Shown: positions 15,630 through 43,844 of the stretch, piece by piece
Numbering within the stretch: position 1 is the first letter of the stretch
Layout of the letters: each line of letters begins with the position of its first letter
From: an uncultured Methanomassiliicoccus sp.
GTDB taxonomy: Archaea > Thermoplasmatota > Thermoplasmata > Methanomassiliicoccales > Methanomassiliicoccaceae
Assembly: GCA_944319735.1 (NCBI GenBank)
Contig: CALUEU010000005.1
Location: forward strand, 1-64,000
Reading direction: 5' to 3'
DNA length: 64,000 nucleotides
Notes under the pieces: model-generated
What the model was told of the DNA's origin: nothing
The model's database searches: none
Seen by the model: the letters and a program-made list of their open reading frames with translations, nothing else
Made by a program: the position numbers and the translations under genes

Positions 15630-16100
15630 ATGGTTTCCGATGCTTTACAGTTTGGTGGGTATTTTTCTATCCTGTGCACGCAGGAGCAGAATCATATGGA
15701 GCCTATCATGCAGAAATATGGATTGAATTCATTCACTTATCCGATTCTTGTTTATCTATCCCGCAATGAAGGCTTGAACCAGAAGAATCTGTATAGAATG
15801 TTCTTGCTTAATGAGTCACTCGCTACCCGCACCATGAGAACACTGGAGGCTGAGGGCTTTATTTTCAGGGAGAGAGATGCAGAAGATAAGCGCTCGTACA
15901 TTCTACGTTTGACAAACAAAGGCAAAGATATCGCTGTTGTGCTGGCAGACGAGTTAGACAAATGGTGGTCTGATGTTCTTCAGCCGCTCAATGAAAATGC
16001 TACTGCTATTCTTGCAGCACAGATGCTTAAAATTTCGCAGCGATCAATCGATCTCAATCAGGCTACAATCGATTCAAAAAAGTGGATAAATAATTCCTAA
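15630..16100 (+). CDS. MarR-family transcriptional regulator
   Basis: The 156-residue protein has the winged-helix arrangement of MarR proteins: FTYPILVYLSRNEGLNQKNL (helices before the recognition helix), LNESLATRTMRTLEAEGFIF (recognition helix) and the wing RERDAEDKRSYILRLTNKGK with the usual D-x-R-S core. A long C-terminal helix would form the dimer interface. AGGAGGTG about 7 bases before the ATG sets the start. The target is unknown; it is divergent from the DUF4143 ATPase across a 207-base region holding a palindrome. Confidence 0.9.
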   Translation: MVSDALQFGGYFSILCTQEQNHMEPIMQKYGLNSFTYPILVYLSRNEGLNQKNLYRMFLLNESLATRTMRTLEAEGFIFRERDAEDKRSYILRLTNKGKDIAVVLADELDKWWSDVLQPLNENATAILAAQMLKISQRSIDLNQATIDSKKWINNS

Positions 16101-16114
16101 AAAAATAATAAGCA

Positions 16115-17056
16115 TCAGACGACATTTTGAGGGCGGCCGTCTAACCAGAGGCGGACGTTCTCCATGGCGATCTCTGCTCTTTTCTGCATTGACTCTTCAG
16201 TTGCAAATGCAACGTGGGGAGTAGCAATTACATTGGGAGCGTTCAAAAGCGGATGGTCTGAAGCAATCGGCGGCTCCGTTTCAAAAACATCAATTCCGGC
16301 ACCTGCCAGGCGACCTTCTCTCAAAGCTTCTGCCAGAGCGCACGAATCAACTATGGAACCTCTGGCAGTGTTTATAAAAACAGCTGAAGGCTTCATGAGT
16401 GCAATCTTGCTTTTATCTATCAGATTTTTAGTTTCAGGAGTAGAAGGCAGATGAAGTGATATTATGTCACATGTTGAAAGTAGATACTCAAGGCTGACAA
16501 ATGAAACACAGGGAAGATCCTTCACACTGCGGTTATAGGCATAGACTTCACATCCAAAAGCGTCTGCAATCTTGGCAACCCTGCTTCCGATGGCTCCTGC
16601 TCCGATAACTCCGAATTTCTTACCTTTAAGTTCATGTCCGACAAGGCCGCTTTTTGTGCCTCCTTCTCTTACAGTGTCATTGCAATCGATTATCTTTCTA
16701 TAGATGTCAATAACCATTCCAAAAACCAGATCAGCAACTGCGGCTGTAGAATATCCGGCGCAGTTGCACACCAGAATGTCTTTTTTCTTGCAGTAGTCTA
16801 TATCCACATGATCTGTGCCAGTGAAGGCTACGCAGATCATTTTCAGATCTGGACATCTTTCTATGACTTCTTTTCTGTAGGGAAAGTTCGAGAGAACAAC
16901 AGCGTCTGCATCCTTGGAACGTTCTATCAGTGTTTCAGTATCTTCCTTTCTATCATCATATGCTGTTATTTCCATTCTGTCCTGAACGGCAGATTCTGCC
17001 AGATTCAGCAGGATTTCTTTAGAGATTCCCAGCGGTTCCAAAATTACCAGTTTCAT
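16115..17056 (-). CDS. D-isomer-specific 2-hydroxyacid dehydrogenase
   Basis: The 313-residue protein has the NAD-binding motif KFGVIGAGAIGSRVAKIADA (about residues 142-161), the catalytic Arg in INTARGSIVD, Glu in FETEPP and His in ATPHVAFAT. It fits the phosphoglycerate/glycerate/hydroxypyruvate reductase group but has no ACT domain. The real substrate cannot be told from sequence, and serA is elsewhere in the window. ATG 17056 follows CAGGAGAG and is preferred over the upstream frame start at 17083. Hairpins and a palindrome occupy the region upstream. Confidence 0.9.
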   Translation of the reverse strand: MKLVILEPLGISKEILLNLAESAVQDRMEITAYDDRKEDTETLIERSKDADAVVLSNFPYRKEVIERCPDLKMICVAFTGTDHVDIDYCKKKDILVCNCAGYSTAAVADLVFGMVIDIYRKIIDCNDTVREGGTKSGLVGHELKGKKFGVIGAGAIGSRVAKIADAFGCEVYAYNRSVKDLPCVSFVSLEYLLSTCDIISLHLPSTPETKNLIDKSKIALMKPSAVFINTARGSIVDSCALAEALREGRLAGAGIDVFETEPPIASDHPLLNAPNVIATPHVAFATEESMQKRAEIAMENVRLWLDGRPQNVV

Positions 17057-17123
17057 CGTTCTCTCCTGAAAAACATACTGCATCGATAGCTAATCTAAAT
17101 TTTCTAAGAATGAAAAACTGAAA

Positions 17124-17158
17124 GGGGGAAACTTCCCCATTTCTCTGAGGAAATGGGG
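17124..17158. repeat. Overlapping alternative hairpins upstream of the hydroxyacid dehydrogenase
   Basis: CCCCATTTC (17135-17143) pairs perfectly with GAAATGGGG (17150-17158). The same CCCC can instead pair with GGGG at 17124-17128. The two stems exclude each other. The region is 70-100 bases upstream of the gene starting at 17056. Confidence 0.45.
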
Positions 17159-17181
17159 CGGAGTTGACTTAATGAGCGATT

Positions 17182-17206
17182 AATATTGGATGTAATATCC
17201 AATATT
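17182..17206. promoter_or_regulatory. Palindrome of two ATCCAATATT half-sites
   Basis: AATATTGGAT (17182-17191) and ATCCAATATT (17197-17206) are perfect 10-bp arms around GTAAT. The same 10-mer occurs in the control regions of cbiD/cbiL and cbiM. Here it lies between the divergent genes starting at 17056 and 17369. Confidence 0.5.
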
Positions 17207-17368
17207 TATATCTGCTTATAGACTTTTACCTTAACCACCATATTTTTCCATGGCAGGTTACAATTCTCAATTACTGATTAATATTCCTTCCATTCATATG
17301 TGATGCAGGTAAAGACAAAGTAATGTTTGAGTTCGAATCATTTATTGGTTTCTATTGGGAGGTATAAT

Positions 17369-35490: not shown

Positions 35491-36189
35491 TCATTTTTTC
35501 TTGATAATTACTGTTGTAAGGTAGTTGTATTCCTTGGAAAGGTCAATGGGGCCAATGTATTCCCCTTCAAGCCCTATTCTGCTAAGGACAGTGGCTTTTG
35601 AAATGTCTATGCCTTTTTCGGACATGATGTCCACAAGCTTCTGCATGCTGCTGCCACCTACTTTCATAACAACTATGTTTTCAAACATGCCCAGAGAATT
35701 GGAAAGTAAAGCTCTGTCCTGCGTTGACGGGATCACCACCAGCGACTCACGCCCCTCCATCAATGGAATCTTGGCAAGTGCTGCACCGCTGCAGAATGAG
35801 GGAATTCCCGGAATGATCTCAGTCTCAAAACCAGACTCTTCTATAAACTGGTTTATATACATATATGTGGAGTAAATAGAAACATCTCCAAGTGTGATCA
35901 TGGCGATGTCTCTTCCTTTTTCTAGTTCGTCAATGAGCAGTTTGCCGGCTTCAGCCCTGCACTGCACGCGGACCTCATCGTCTGGGTTCATACTGAAGAG
36001 GACTTCAATTACCTTTTTGCCAGAAACATCAACAACTTGCTCAACGATATCCATTGCGACACTGTGTTCACCTAGAACTTTGACCGGTATTGCGATAACT
36101 TCAGAGCTTTCCAATATCTTTTTTGCTTTAAGTGTGAGTAGTTCAGGATCTCCTGGCCCTACTCCAATTCCATATAATTTCCCCGTCAT
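35491..36189 (-). CDS. cbiL: Cobalt-precorrin-2 C20-methyltransferase
   Basis: The 232-residue protein has GKLYGIGVGPGDPELLTLKA, ALVAIPVKVL-like early sequence, MITLGDVSIYSTYMYINQF and EIIPGIPSFCSGAALAKIPL, as in CbiL/CobI. It adds the C20 methyl to cobalt-precorrin-2. ATG 36189 follows GGAGAC; TTG 36204 is the alternative. It is the promoter-proximal gene of the reverse set and diverges from cbiD across a 155-base control region with an ATCCAATATT element. Confidence 0.93.
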   Translation of the reverse strand: MTGKLYGIGVGPGDPELLTLKAKKILESSEVIAIPVKVLGEHSVAMDIVEQVVDVSGKKVIEVLFSMNPDDEVRVQCRAEAGKLLIDELEKGRDIAMITLGDVSIYSTYMYINQFIEESGFETEIIPGIPSFCSGAALAKIPLMEGRESLVVIPSTQDRALLSNSLGMFENIVVMKVGGSSMQKLVDIMSEKGIDISKATVLSRIGLEGEYIGPIDLSKEYNYLTTVIIKKK

Positions 36190-36261
36190 AGCAGTTGTCT
36201 CCAAGTTATGAAATTTTTATCGTATCTATCTTTAGCTTAGCGCCGTAATGAAATGCTAAGT

Positions 36262-36328
36262 ATTATAAATTTGGCACATATATCCAATATTGTACTATAG
36301 CTAGATTATTAATCTGTAACCATAGTAC
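36262..36328. promoter_or_regulatory. Divergent cbiL/cbiD control region with ATCCAATATT element
   Basis: A TATA-like ATTATAAATTTG at 36262-36273 can serve either strand. ATATCCAATATT (36280-36291) follows it. A looser dyad GTACTAT (36292-36298) / ATAGTAC (36322-36328) and an inner dyad AGATTA-T-TAATCT lie downstream. The element falls between TATA box and expected start for cbiD, the position expected of a repressor site. Confidence 0.5.
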
Positions 36329-36344
36329 TAGAGATAATGTAGGT

Positions 36345-37499
36345 ATGGACATGGAATCTGAATCCAGCGGAGAACTTTATGTATACAGAAACAACCAGCG
36401 TCTGCGATGTGGCCATACTACAGGATCTTGCGCTACCGCCGCGGCTAAGGCGGCAACATTGATGCTGCTTTCAAGAAAATCAATCAATGAAATATCAATT
36501 ACGACTACAAAGGGGACTGTTCTTAACCTTCCAGTTTTGGATGTTAAAATTTCTGAGAACTCTGCATCATGCGCCGTTAAAAAAGATGGTGGGGACGATA
36601 TCGATGCTACACACGGAGCATTAGTCTACGCGGAAATCTCTCTTACTGATGGAGGATTGGAAATCGACGGAGGGGAAGGCGTAGGGAGAGTAACTAAAAA
36701 AGGACTGGACCAGCCAGTAGGCAATGCCGCCATAAACAGTGTACCGAGACAGACAATCTCTCAGGCTGTGAAAGACGCCTGCAATCTCCATGGATATGAT
36801 GGAGGAATTAAAGTAACAATCTCAGTGCCCGAGGGTGAGCAGATTGCAGAGAAGACTTTCAATCCAAGGCTCGGCATCGTCGGCGGAATCTCAATCATCG
36901 GTACCAGTGGAATTGTGGAGCCCATGAGCCAGGAAGCTTTGGTGGAGACAATCAGAACAGAAATGAAGATGAGAATTGCTAACGGCTCGTCTGTAATTCT
37001 GGCAGTTCCTGGAAACTACGGTGAAGATTTCTCTCAGACGATCTGCTCTGTTCCAACAGGACAGATGGTGAAATGCAGCAATTTTATCGGAGAGACTATT
37101 GATGGTGCAGTAGAGTTTGGTGCAGAAGGTTTGCTTTTTATCTCTAATATCGGCAAATTCGTAAAAGTAGCCGGCGGGATTATGAACACTCATTCTAAAA
37201 ATGCAGACTCCAGAATGGAAATTCTCACTGCCCATGCAGCGCTGGCAGATGCAGATAACGACATCCTGCTGAAAATTATGAATTCTGTGACAACTGAGGA
37301 TGCTTTAGACATTCTCAGTGAAAATGATTTACTTCAACCAGTGATGAGGTCAATCACCGACAAAATTAACTTTTATCTGAATAACCGAGCCAAAGGGCAG
37401 ATTTTAACAGGTGCAATAATATTCTCCTCCAACTATGGTTTGTTAGGAGAAACTGAAAATGCAGGAAAACTCCTGAAAATTTTGGAGGACAGTTTGTGA
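36345..37499 (+). CDS. cbiD: Cobalt-precorrin-5B C1-methyltransferase
   Basis: The 384-residue protein has RCGHTTGSCATAAAKAATLM, CAVKKDGGDDIDATHGALVY, EGVGRVTKKGLDQPVGNAAI, GIVGGISIIGTSGIVEPMSQ and AVPGNYGEDFS, all CbiD hallmarks. It methylates C1. ATG 36345 and ATG 36351 are both possible. cbiG starts inside its last codons (GTGA overlap). Confidence 0.96.
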   Translation: MDMESESSGELYVYRNNQRLRCGHTTGSCATAAAKAATLMLLSRKSINEISITTTKGTVLNLPVLDVKISENSASCAVKKDGGDDIDATHGALVYAEISLTDGGLEIDGGEGVGRVTKKGLDQPVGNAAINSVPRQTISQAVKDACNLHGYDGGIKVTISVPEGEQIAEKTFNPRLGIVGGISIIGTSGIVEPMSQEALVETIRTEMKMRIANGSSVILAVPGNYGEDFSQTICSVPTGQMVKCSNFIGETIDGAVEFGAEGLLFISNIGKFVKVAGGIMNTHSKNADSRMEILTAHAALADADNDILLKIMNSVTTEDALDILSENDLLQPVMRSITDKINFYLNNRAKGQILTGAIIFSSNYGLLGETENAGKLLKILEDSL

Positions 37500-38533
37500 A
37501 AATAAAGCTCATCGGGTTTTCCAGCACTGGCTGCTCACTGGCGGAAAGAATATCTGAAATTTTATCATCAAAAGACAATGATTGTGAAGTATACGGCAAA
37601 TGTACGTTCGTTTCAGAATCTAATGTTACTCCAGTTACTCAACCTCTTCATGAATGGACTGAAAAAGCATTTCAAGAATCAGATGCCATAATATTTGTTG
37701 GTGCAGTTGGAATAGCTGTCCGCGCTATAGCGCCGTTCGTTAAGACAAAGGTGGCGGATCCTGCAGTTATTGTTTTAGACGAAAAGGGAACTTATTCCAT
37801 ACCGCTGCTGTCTGGACACATAGGCGGAGCAAACAATCTTGCTAAAGTCATAGCAGAAGCAACAGGAGCTGAAGCAGTCATCACAACTGCAACAGACATT
37901 AACGGAAAGTTTTCTGTAGACTCATTTGCTGAAGAACATGGCATGTACATCAGCAGCATGCTGTATGCAAAAGATGTCTCCGCCTACATTCTGGAAAAGG
38001 GATGCGTTGGATTCAAAAGTGATTTTTCAGTCGAAGGCCAGTTGCCAGACGGGTTAGCCTATGCGGAAGATGGAGACATCGGCGTACACATAACTTCCAG
38101 TGATCTGAAAGGTCCATTCTCTAAAACATTGAATTTAATTCCAAAAACAGTAATAATCGGACTAGGCTGCAAAAAAGATACGCCGTCTGAAAAAATTGAA
38201 GAGCTTATTCTTAAAGTTCTGAAAAGTAATGAATTATCGATCCACAGTGTGAAAGCAGTAGCCAGCATTGACATTAAAATGAATGAGCCTGGCATCTTAA
38301 ATTTTTGTAAAAAATACGGACTAAAAGCATCATTCTTCTCCAAGGAAGCACTGGAAGGAATAGAGGGAGACTTCTCAGAATCTTCTTTCGTTAAAAGCAT
38401 AACTGGGATTGGTAACGTATGCGAAAGGGCAGCTTTGAAAGCATCCGACAACGGCAGACTTATACAGAAAAAAGTCGCAGAAGACGGAGTCACGGTTGCA
38501 ATCGCATCTGAATCATTTATTGTTCATTTATAG
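37496..38533 (+). CDS. cbiG: Cobalt-precorrin-5A hydrolase
   Basis: The 345-residue protein has AIIFVGAVGIAVRAIAPFVK, DPAVIVLDEKGTYSIPLLSG, HIGGANNLAKVIAEATGAEA and a C-terminal CobE-like domain (IIGLGCKKDTPSEKIEELIL, SIDIKMNEPGI). It opens the delta-lactone and releases acetaldehyde. GTG 37496 overlaps cbiD. The stop is TAG, followed by AAG TGA, so reading through would add only two residues. Confidence 0.95.
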   Translation: MKIKLIGFSSTGCSLAERISEILSSKDNDCEVYGKCTFVSESNVTPVTQPLHEWTEKAFQESDAIIFVGAVGIAVRAIAPFVKTKVADPAVIVLDEKGTYSIPLLSGHIGGANNLAKVIAEATGAEAVITTATDINGKFSVDSFAEEHGMYISSMLYAKDVSAYILEKGCVGFKSDFSVEGQLPDGLAYAEDGDIGVHITSSDLKGPFSKTLNLIPKTVIIGLGCKKDTPSEKIEELILKVLKSNELSIHSVKAVASIDIKMNEPGILNFCKKYGLKASFFSKEALEGIEGDFSESSFVKSITGIGNVCERAALKASDNGRLIQKKVAEDGVTVAIASESFIVHL

Positions 38534-38543
38534 AAGTGATCAC

Positions 38544-40547
38544 ATGTCTGAAAAAATTCTCATATTTGCAGGGACCACAGAAGGCAGACAATTGGCCGAA
38601 TATCTGGGCTCCCAGGGCATTTCTGCACACGTCTGTGTCGCAACAGAGTACGGAGAGCAGCTTGTTAAGAAAAGTGATACTGTGACCGTCACTGCTGGAA
38701 GACTGGATTGTGAAGGGATGCAGGATCTTATCAAAGAAGGTTTTTCGCTGGTAATCGATGCCACTCATCCATATGCTGTGATCGTATCTTCTAACATCAA
38801 AGAGGCGTGTAGCAAGGCTGGAGTCGAATATATGAGACTCCTGAGGCATGAAGGCTCCCGTCAAGGTGATTTGGTTGAAGTTCCAAGTGTGGAAGATGCT
38901 GTAAGGTATCTTCAGAATACTGAAGGGAACATTCTCGTGGCTACAGGCAGCAAAGAGATTGCCAAATTCACTGCCTTGGATAACTACAAGGAGAGAGTTT
39001 TTGCCAGGGTTCTCTCCACCGCATCGGTTGCCAAAGCCTGCTCGGATCTCGGCTTTGAGGGAAAGAATCTGATCTGCATGCAAGGTCCATTCTGTGAAGA
39101 GTTGAACTACGGGATGCTTAAGCAGATCTCTGCAAAATATATGGTTACTAAAGATTCAGGTAAAGTTGGCGGGTTTGAAGACAAAATCCGTGCCGCGAAG
39201 AGGGCTGGAGTCCAAGTCGTTTTGGTCGGAAGACCTCAGGGCGACGAGGGAAGATCTTATGATGAAGTTATCAAGGAATTAAATTCGCGATTTGGCATAA
39301 GCACCCCTTTAAAAGAAGCTCCTAAATCAAAAAGAAAAGTAACTCTTGTGGGCATAGGCATGGGGGACTCCAGCCAGCTCACATTAGAAGCTGTAGATGC
39401 CTGTCAAAATGCTGATGTAATCATCGGTGCTGAGAGAATGCTCTCTTCTGTAAAGATGCATTGCAGCAATACTTTCAATGCATATCTCTCGGATGAAATC
39501 ATAGGTTTCATAAAATCTCATGAGGAGTATTGCAACATTGTTGTAGCGCTTTCAGGTGATGTAGGATTTTACAGCGCTGCAAAGAAACTGATTGACGCGA
39601 TAGAGAAAGAAGGCTACGAACTGAAGCTGGTGTGCGGAATATCTTCAGTAGTTTACTTGTGCTCCAAACTGAAAACATCCTGGGAAGACATCAATCTCCT
39701 GAGTGCTCATGGTAGGGATGCAAACATCATTGCTTCAGTGAAGTCACACAAGAAAACCTTTGCACTTCTTAGCGGATCAGACGTCGTGCGTAGCATCTGC
39801 GATTCTCTTATTGCAGCAGGTTTGAATGATGTCATATTACACATAGGTGAGAACCTATCATACAGCAATGAACTGATTACTTCCGGGCAGCCCGCGGACT
39901 TAAAAAACCAGGACTTCGGAAAGCTGTGTGTGGTTTTAATCACCAATGAAAAAGCAGATTCCACAAATCCTCTGGGCATAGATGATGAAAATTTTATCAG
40001 AGGAACTGCCCCCATGACTAAAAGTGAGGTTAGGACTCTGGCAATAACTAAACTTAAACTGAAGCAGGACTCGGTCATATATGATATCGGAGCTGGAACC
40101 GGTTCGGTCTCCATAGAAATGGCATTGGCAGTTCCAGATGGTACCGTTTATGCAATCGAAAAGGAGAATGAAGCAGTAGACTTAATCAGACAGAATAAAG
40201 CCAAGTTTGGAACTTTCAATCTTGAAATAATTCACGGAACTGCTCCAGATGCGATTAGAGAGCTTCCCGAACCCACACACGCATTCATCGGGGGTTCTTC
40301 TGGAAACCTGAATGATATCATGCAGACATTGCTGTCAAAAAATAAGGACATGCGGATAGTGATCACCGCAGTAACCTTAGAAACAGTCTCAGAAGCATTG
40401 TCATGTATGACCAACTTTGGTTTCAAACATCGTGATATTATGCAGCTATCAGTGTCAAAATCAAGAGAGATTGGAAGTTACAACCTAATGACTGCTCAAA
40501 ACCCTGTTTATATGTTTACATTAGGTGAGGCCAGCAGACGTAATTAA
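38544..40547 (+). CDS. Fused CbiJ-CbiE-CbiT (precorrin-6A reductase / C5,C15-methyltransferase / decarboxylase)
   Basis: The 667-residue protein joins three enzymes. CbiJ spans residues about 1-255 (EKILIFAGTTEGRQLAEYLG, ATHPYAVIVSSNIKEA, TKDSGKVGGFEDKIRAAKRA). CbiE spans about 265-470 (GIGMGDSSQLTLEAVDACQ, VALSGDVGFYSAAKKLI). CbiT starts near 480, with GTAPMTKSEVRTLAITKL, YDIGAGTGSVSIEMAL and HAFIGGSSGNLNDI. It would reduce cobalt-precorrin-6A, methylate C5 and C15 and decarboxylate. ATG 38544 follows GTGAT and is 10 bases after cbiG. CbiE-CbiT fusions (CobL) are common; the three-way fusion is less so. It completes cbiD-G-JET. Confidence 0.92.
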   Translation: MSEKILIFAGTTEGRQLAEYLGSQGISAHVCVATEYGEQLVKKSDTVTVTAGRLDCEGMQDLIKEGFSLVIDATHPYAVIVSSNIKEACSKAGVEYMRLLRHEGSRQGDLVEVPSVEDAVRYLQNTEGNILVATGSKEIAKFTALDNYKERVFARVLSTASVAKACSDLGFEGKNLICMQGPFCEELNYGMLKQISAKYMVTKDSGKVGGFEDKIRAAKRAGVQVVLVGRPQGDEGRSYDEVIKELNSRFGISTPLKEAPKSKRKVTLVGIGMGDSSQLTLEAVDACQNADVIIGAERMLSSVKMHCSNTFNAYLSDEIIGFIKSHEEYCNIVVALSGDVGFYSAAKKLIDAIEKEGYELKLVCGISSVVYLCSKLKTSWEDINLLSAHGRDANIIASVKSHKKTFALLSGSDVVRSICDSLIAAGLNDVILHIGENLSYSNELITSGQPADLKNQDFGKLCVVLITNEKADSTNPLGIDDENFIRGTAPMTKSEVRTLAITKLKLKQDSVIYDIGAGTGSVSIEMALAVPDGTVYAIEKENEAVDLIRQNKAKFGTFNLEIIHGTAPDAIRELPEPTHAFIGGSSGNLNDIMQTLLSKNKDMRIVITAVTLETVSEALSCMTNFGFKHRDIMQLSVSKSREIGSYNLMTAQNPVYMFTLGEASRRN

Positions 40548-40618
40548 GCACACTCTGCTCCTAATCACATTTCTATTTTTGTTGGAATTCCACCATATCC
40601 TTTTAATAATACATTATG

Positions 40619-40638
40619 TATCCAAGTAATATTGGATA
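40619..40638. promoter_or_regulatory. ATCCAATATT-type palindrome upstream of cbiM
   Basis: TATCCAA (40619-40625) and TTGGATA (40632-40638) enclose GTAATA. AATATTGGAT at 40628-40637 is an exact copy of the 10-mer at cbiD. A TATA-like TTTTAATAAT lies at 40601-40610, so the site again sits just downstream of the TATA box. It is a candidate cobalt- or cobalamin-responsive operator. Confidence 0.5.
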
Positions 40639-40700
40639 TATTGTCCATCAATACGATTGATATGACATATACATCACACCATCAGACCACAAGGGGTGAC

Positions 40701-40796: not shown

Positions 40797-41489
40797 ATGC
40801 ACATAATGGAAGGATATTTGCCTGCTTCATGGGCAGCTTTGTGGTACATCATAGCGATGCCTATTGTCGCTTATGGGGCCATTAAGCTCATAAAGCTCCT
40901 GAGAGAAAAACCTGAACTGAAAATAACTGTAGCACTTTCTGGAGCATTTATTTTCGTTCTGTCTGCTTTGAAACTGCCATCGCTTGTCGGAGGATCGTCA
41001 TCCCATCCGACTGGTACCGGACTTTCAAGTGCCTTGTATGGTCCGGCGATAACTGCCGTATTGTCTACCATTGTTTTGTTATTCCAGGCCCTTCTGCTGG
41101 CTCATGGTGGAATCACGTCCCTGGGAGCTAATGTATTTTCAATGGGTATTGCAGGACCAGCTGTCGGATATGTGGTGTATAAAACAATGAGAAAGGCCAA
41201 ATTTGGCATAGCGCCTTCAATGTTCGCTACCGCAGCTTTGGCAGATCTTGTAACTTATATAGTCACTTCAATGCAGCTGGCATTGGCTTTCCCCGCAGAT
41301 GTCGGAGGCTTCTTAGCTTCATTCGTCGATTATCTGGGAATATTCGCAGCAGTACAGATTCCACTGGCAATAATCGAAGGAATAATCTTCGCAATCTTTG
41401 CAGACTATCTGATGTCTGTAAGGCCAGAATCTTTCGAGAACTGCAAAATCCGCTTAAGGCGGAAAAAATCAGCACCGGAGAGTGACTGA
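40797..41489 (+). CDS. cbiM: Cobalt ECF transporter substrate-binding component CbiM
   Basis: The 230-residue protein begins MHIMEGYLPASWAALWYIIA; the conserved N-terminal Met-His and the next His/Glu bind cobalt in this family. SLVGGSSSHPTGTGLSSALY and LLLAHGGITSLGANVFSMGI are further hallmarks, with about six membrane helices. It is the cobalt-specific membrane subunit. AAGGAGG is 10 bases upstream. cbiN, cbiQ and cbiO follow with almost no gaps. Confidence 0.96.
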   Translation: MHIMEGYLPASWAALWYIIAMPIVAYGAIKLIKLLREKPELKITVALSGAFIFVLSALKLPSLVGGSSSHPTGTGLSSALYGPAITAVLSTIVLLFQALLLAHGGITSLGANVFSMGIAGPAVGYVVYKTMRKAKFGIAPSMFATAALADLVTYIVTSMQLALAFPADVGGFLASFVDYLGIFAAVQIPLAIIEGIIFAIFADYLMSVRPESFENCKIRLRRKKSAPESD

Positions 41490-43823: not shown

Positions 43824-43844
43824 CATATATACACAATCCAATAT
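43824..43844 (+). promoter_or_regulatory. TATA box and AATCCAATAT site before the symporter operon
   Basis: CATATATAC at 43824-43832 is a TATA candidate. AATCCAATAT (43835-43844), which matches ATCCAATATT at 9 of 10 positions, follows immediately. The arrangement resembles the cbi control regions. Confidence 0.4.

What the first reader, a model, noticed from the sequence alone, without database searches (positions are those of the whole stretch)
36280..40638. ATCCAATATT operator candidate at the cobalamin control regions
The 10-mer ATCCAATATT (or its reverse complement) occurs exactly at 36282-36291 (cbiL/cbiD), 40628-40637 (cbiM) and twice as a palindrome at 17182-17206, with a 9 of 10 match at 43835-43844 before the symporter. 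All lie in intergenic DNA, and three sit just downstream of a TATA-like box, where a repressor would act. A nickel/cobalt or B12-responsive factor is plausible.
Basis: partly seen in the sequence, partly recalled or inferred. Interest (0 to 1): 0.6.

Follow-up and report, generated by a model that had tools for sequence, protein, structure and literature searches.

The report
Order-wide B12 operator in methanogens
A short mirror-image DNA sequence that looks like a repressor landing site sits at the promoters of vitamin B12 synthesis, cobalt-uptake and B12-uptake genes across a whole order of methane-making archaea; the 10-letter motif first noticed is one half of it, and the protein that reads it is still unknown.

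Summary
Genome-wide it is only about 1.5 times background (15 copies, about 10 expected), and 10 of the 15 have no dyad. The real element is the 17-bp palindrome TTGGAT-N5-ATCCAA, of which the 10-mer is a half-site plus flank. In the window it lies at 17186-17202 (perfect), 36271-36287 (cbiD, 10/12) and 40632-40648 (cbiM, 10/12). The symporter site (9/12) is rejected.

Relatives support function: 70 of 76 genomes of the order carry it (396 copies), against 7 copies in 81 genomes of sister families. It sits at TATA/start-site positions before BtuF-type transporters, CobB/CbiA, CobN, CobT, cbi operons, corrinoid proteins and cbiM. Upstream of cbiD, 7 of 11 orthologues carry it (shuffles: mean 0.19, maximum 3). 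This cbiD nests within Clostridia, one of which keeps a cobalamin riboswitch there; the archaea have the palindrome instead.

Best reading: operator of a dimeric repressor of an order-wide B12/cobalt regulon. The nearby MarR is not the common regulator; Fur is disfavoured (own box, not found here); NikR is not supported. Regulator and effector are unidentified.

The parts
36271..36287 (+).
   Evidence: same layout in G023, G037 and G026
36261..36269 (+). TATA-like box TATTATAAA abutting the cbiD operator
   Evidence: sequence; TATTATAA abutting TTGGC also in G023 and UBA328
36345..37499 (+). cbiD, bacterial-type (nests within Clostridia)
   Evidence: TIGR00312 E 7e-126; tree
35491..36204 (-). 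cbiL, divergent from cbiD across the same control region
   Evidence: TIGR01467
40632..40648 (+). Operator at the cbiM promoter, TTGGATATATTGTCCAT (10/12); an inverted extra half-site ATCCAA lies at 40620-40625
40601..40609 (+). TATA-like box TTTTAATAA about 22 bp upstream of the cbiM operator
   Evidence: sequence
40797..41489 (+). cbiM, first gene of the ECF cobalt transporter operon
   Evidence: TIGR00123 E 6.5e-86
17186..17202 (.). Perfect operator TTGGATGTAATATCCAA (25-bp dyad 17182-17206 with flanks)
17203..17212 (-). TATA-like box GATATAAATA (minus strand) abutting the perfect operator, pointing at the 2-hydroxyacid dehydrogenase gene 16115-17083
   Evidence: sequence

Best explanation
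ATCCAATATT is one arm plus flank of a 17- to 19-bp palindromic operator (consensus RTTGGATGWWWCATCCAAY) that controls an order-wide corrinoid regulon in Methanomassiliicoccales. A homodimeric DNA-binding protein, not yet identified, binds the dyad at or just downstream of the TATA box, so that bound protein would block TBP/TFB or RNA polymerase (repression). It most likely leaves the DNA when corrinoid, or cobalt as its proxy, is scarce, switching on B12 synthesis, cobalt import (CbiMNQO), B12 import (BtuFCD-type) and some corrinoid proteins together. Shown here: the motif, its spacing preference, its restriction to this order, its target genes and its promoter position. Inferred: dimeric protein, repression, corrinoid/cobalt as the signal.
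For: Spacing: over spacers 0-30, spacer 5 takes 6 of 17 TTGGAT..ATCCAA pairs in this genome, one of them a tRNA-Ser arm. Clade: 396 exact sites in 76 genomes of the order against 7 in 81 genomes of other families of the class (sums mine). Targets: BtuF-type binding proteins as first gene in 12 genomes, CobB/CbiA, CobT, CobN, chelatase, CbiC, cbiD/cbiL, corrinoid proteins, cobopeptide radical-SAM enzyme CbpB. Orthologous promoters: 7 of 11 cbiD upstream regions have a site >=10/12, shuffles mean 0.19, max 3 of 2000. cbiM: site in this genome, G003, G006, G010. Position: median 22 bp before the start codon, AT-rich zone 20-30 bp upstream with most of the TATA-like matches at -30. No cobalamin riboswitch in the window or the archaeal loci searched.
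Against: The two cbi sites in this window are 10/12, and such matches occur about 5 times per 64 kb by chance; they rest on position and conservation. Four of 11 cbiD upstream regions lack a site at that level. Some perfect sites in this genome precede genes with no known B12 role (2-hydroxyacid dehydrogenase, FtsZ-like protein, flavodoxins). No regulator was identified and no expression or binding data exist here.
Confidence: 0.8

Rival explanations
1. NikR, the nickel-responsive repressor, binds the motif to control nickel/cobalt uptake.
For: NikR-type proteins occur in every genome of the order, including this one; cbiM-type transporters can carry Ni or Co (general knowledge).
Against: They are equally present in genomes without the palindrome (G019, G022), and G005, G013, G015 and G074 have 5-11 sites but only weak NikR_C matches (E 1e-8 to 1e-14). 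The NikR loci read here have no palindrome (>=11/12) and no B12 genes; the second, ~130-aa family sits beside metal ABC transporters or a heavy-metal ATPase. NikR sites are known for much longer spacing between arms (general knowledge). Targets are B12 genes.
Confidence: 0.05
2. A Fur-family protein, encoded next to cbiM in many relatives, binds the palindrome as a cobalt or nickel sensor.
For: fur directly precedes cbiM in f3 and several f1 genomes, and in G002, G009 and G011 a perfect site lies between fur and cbiA.
Against: No match in this genome or in most f2 genomes, including G062 with 19 sites. These fur genes have a different box, TAGTAATNATTACTA or GATAATGATAATCATTA type, just upstream. 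Where fur directly precedes cbiM the TTGGAT site is absent from the f3 cbiM promoters.
Confidence: 0.05
3. The MarR protein at 15630-16100 in the window is the common regulator.
For: It is a MarR-family winged helix 1.1 kb from the perfect palindrome; MarR proteins often bind dyads of this size (general knowledge).
Against: Only 46 of 76 genomes have any match, outside this genome at E 5e-13 or weaker (about 20-44% identity), i.e. paralogues; none in f1 g3 or f3 g6, which carry sites.
Confidence: 0.02
4. The DUF4443 winged-helix protein is the regulator.
For: Present in all 76 genomes; in this genome an extra copy lies in an operon with an 11/12 site near a BtuFCD-type operon, and in G017 a perfect site lies just downstream of the gene.
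Against: Also present in genomes without sites; in the loci read it lies next to S-adenosylmethionine synthetase, and no site was found in those 30 loci.
Confidence: 0.12
5. The motif is a chance repeat of AT-rich DNA.
For: The bare 10-mer is only about 1.5 times its expected number genome-wide and most copies are outside dyads.
Against: The 17-bp dyad is enriched at one spacing, confined to this order, and recurs at orthologous B12 promoters.
Confidence: 0.02

Closest known systems
CBL-box of a hypothetical archaeal B12 regulator (Rodionov et al. 2003, J Biol Chem; recalled from memory, paper not held)
   Same: A proposed DNA operator for an unidentified B12 regulator at cobalamin genes of some archaea.
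   Different: I cannot recall or check its consensus; that work predates genomes of this order, and the present motif is essentially confined to this order among the genomes searched.
Cobalamin riboswitch (RF00174)
   Same: Controls the same kinds of genes (cbi, btu, cobalt transport) in bacteria.
   Different: RNA element; none found in the window or archaeal loci, while a clostridial relative has one before cbiD.
TrmB control of cobalamin genes in Halobacterium (PMC3794607)
   Same: Archaeal transcriptional control of cob/cbi genes, with a further regulator inferred.
   Different: Glucose-responsive, in a haloarchaeon; no such operator was mentioned in the passages read.
NikR and Fur metal repressors
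   Same: Metal-uptake control by dimeric or tetrameric repressors binding palindromes near promoters.
   Different: Distribution and box sequence do not match.

Membership tests
Palindromic transcription-factor operator | Two-fold symmetric site enriched at one spacing | tested here: met
   Spacing 5 takes 6 of 17 pairs over spacings 0-30; symmetric consensus from 161 sites (arms fixed by the search, so only spacer and flanks are independent)
Palindromic transcription-factor operator | Recurs at orthologous promoters of functionally linked genes | tested here: met
Palindromic transcription-factor operator | Bound by a specific protein | not testable with these tools
   no binding data; regulator unidentified
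NikR operator | Regulator distribution tracks the sites | tested here: not met
Fur box | Fur present where the sites are | tested here: not met
   Fur not found in this genome or in most f2 genomes with sites
Fur box | Fur-type sequence, as found before the fur genes of this order | tested here: not met
   fur genes carry TAGTAATNATTACTA-type boxes instead
Cobalamin riboswitch (RF00174) | Match to the covariance model at Rfam's threshold | tested here: not met
Archaeal CBL-box (Rodionov 2003) | Same consensus sequence | not testable with these tools
   paper not held

The most novel reading that the evidence does not exclude
An undescribed archaeal transcription factor of Methanomassiliicoccales senses corrinoid (or cobalt) directly and, through this operator, forms an order-wide B12 regulon that took over from riboswitch control of a cbi operon acquired from Clostridia.
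Probability: 0.4. Interest if true: 0.75.

Novelty: new member of a known kind. Interest (0 to 1): 0.58.

Why it matters
Methanomassiliicoccales make methane through corrinoid-dependent methyltransferases and are marked out by many B12 transporters; PMC10804542 reports higher expression of their B12 and cobalt transport genes in low-methane sheep. An order-wide operator shows which genes are likely to respond together, gives a bait to isolate an archaeal corrinoid or cobalt regulator, and shows how a bacterial operon often under riboswitch control can come under an archaeal DNA operator.

Tried and rejected
Bare 10-mer as the operator (near background genome-wide). Symporter site (9/12). MarR, Fur, a double-Lrp protein divergent from a B12-type operon in G027 (not found in this genome or most f2 genomes), NikR and a second NikR-like family as the common regulator; DUF4443 left as a weak candidate. 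TrmB, TetR, ArsR and AsnC genes near single sites were not operator-proximal or occurred near sites in one genome only, and were not pursued. The 'pattern read backwards' control was not relied on for 2-mismatch counts because it creates CTAG-rich strings; spacing and clade controls were used instead. Literature searches found no description of this motif in the open-licence library.

Full report
Observation. The four exact 10-mers are present, and 0.36 would be expected in 64 kb. In the whole genome there are 15, about 1.5 times background, and only the four window copies and one at C3:122477 belong to a dyad.

The element. Two of the copies form AATATTGGAT-N5-ATCCAATATT at 17182-17206. The core TTGGAT-N5-ATCCAA occurs exactly six times in the genome, one of them in a tRNA-Ser gene. 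Over spacings 0-30, spacing 5 has 6 of 17 hits. The cbiD and cbiM copies are 10/12 members of the same dyad, at 36271-36287 and 40632-40648; matches of that quality are expected about 5 times per window by chance, so their meaning rests on position and conservation.

Distribution. Exact sites occur in 70 of 76 genomes of the order, 396 in total (my sum), while 81 genomes of other families in the same class have 7 (my count). In the rest of the phylum the listed hits are scattered and few per genome, and a number of them are TTGGATTGCTAATCCAA, the same 17-mer as in the tRNA-Ser gene found here. 161 distinct sites give the symmetric consensus RTTGGATGWWWCATCCAAY (the arms were fixed by the search, the spacer and flanks were not). 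The order is taken to be Methanomassiliicoccales because the named record L364 (Methanomassiliicoccaceae archaeon UBA328) falls inside the cbiD clade of these genomes.

Targets. In loci from relatives of families f1 and f4, and in further f2 and f3 genomes, sites lie directly before BtuF-type binding proteins (12 genomes as first gene), CobB/CbiA, CobT, CobN, chelatase subunits, CbiC, cbiD, cbiL, corrinoid proteins, and a cobopeptide radical-SAM enzyme CbpB. In this genome a dockerin-bearing surface protein at C1:58568 has two sites 20 bp apart; its cluster follows a site in five genomes, and proteins of this look lead ABC-transporter operons in relatives. Sites that could be oriented lie a median 22 bp before the start codon, with an AT-rich zone 20-30 bp upstream. 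At cbiD the TATA box abuts the operator, and the layout TATTATAA, TTGGC, ATCC is shared with G023 and UBA328.

Orthologous promoters. Of 11 cbiD orthologues of this type, 7 have a site at >=10/12 within 200 bp upstream (shuffles: mean 0.19, maximum 3 of 2000). For cbiM the site is present in this genome, G003, G006 and G010, and absent in the f3 genomes, where fur directly precedes cbiM.

History. The nearest cbiD relatives outside the order are Clostridia (up to 59% identity). In the tree 12 archaeal rows form a clade inside Clostridia, apart from a divergent cbiD in other members of the order. One of 11 clostridial loci searched has a cobalamin riboswitch before cbiD at Rfam's threshold; the archaeal loci have none. 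The 32 bacterial loci lack the palindrome apart from one 11/12 match. The other type of cbi cluster, in G027, also starts with two perfect sites, so the same operator serves both.

Regulator. MarR (15630-16100), Fur, the double-Lrp protein and two NikR-like families were checked by distribution and neighbourhood, and none fits. DUF4443 is universal but in the loci read is linked to S-adenosylmethionine synthetase. The regulator is unidentified.

Mechanism. A dimer on a one-turn dyad overlapping the TATA/start region would repress; joint control of synthesis and uptake points to corrinoid or cobalt shortage as the inducing state. This is inference from anatomy and gene content, not shown.

Novelty. 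The kind (DNA operator read by a transcription factor) is known, and a hypothetical archaeal B12 operator was proposed before (from memory, not checked). No paper in the library searched describes this motif.

Noticed in passing
window 17115-17186 (minus direction) and L019:1517-1620: The perfect operators at 17186 and at C3:122466 are each followed within about 25-55 nt by a stem CCCATTTC..GAAATGGG, found nowhere else in 360 fetched loci; a small operator-controlled RNA is possible.
   Followed up: partly
L103:4001, L113:4001, L128:4001, L148:4001: In four f1 genomes a perfect operator with a TATA box lies between convergent mevalonate kinase and FAD-reductase (geranylgeranyl reductase-like) genes, with no obvious gene behind it; possible non-coding RNA.
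   Followed up: no
L159-L176: fur genes next to cbiM carry their own Fur-type box, suggesting a second, alternative control of the cobalt transporter in these archaea.
   Followed up: partly
L270, L280, L286, L289, L291, L296: In f2 genomes the operator precedes roughly 700-aa NifH-NifD-like fusion proteins (closest model CfbC) often near BtuFCD-type genes; role unknown.
   Followed up: no
L140:6019-7418 (C3:302031): An operon of a zinc-ribbon protein and an extra DUF4443 winged-helix protein follows an 11/12 site next to a BtuFCD-type operon in this genome.
   Followed up: partly
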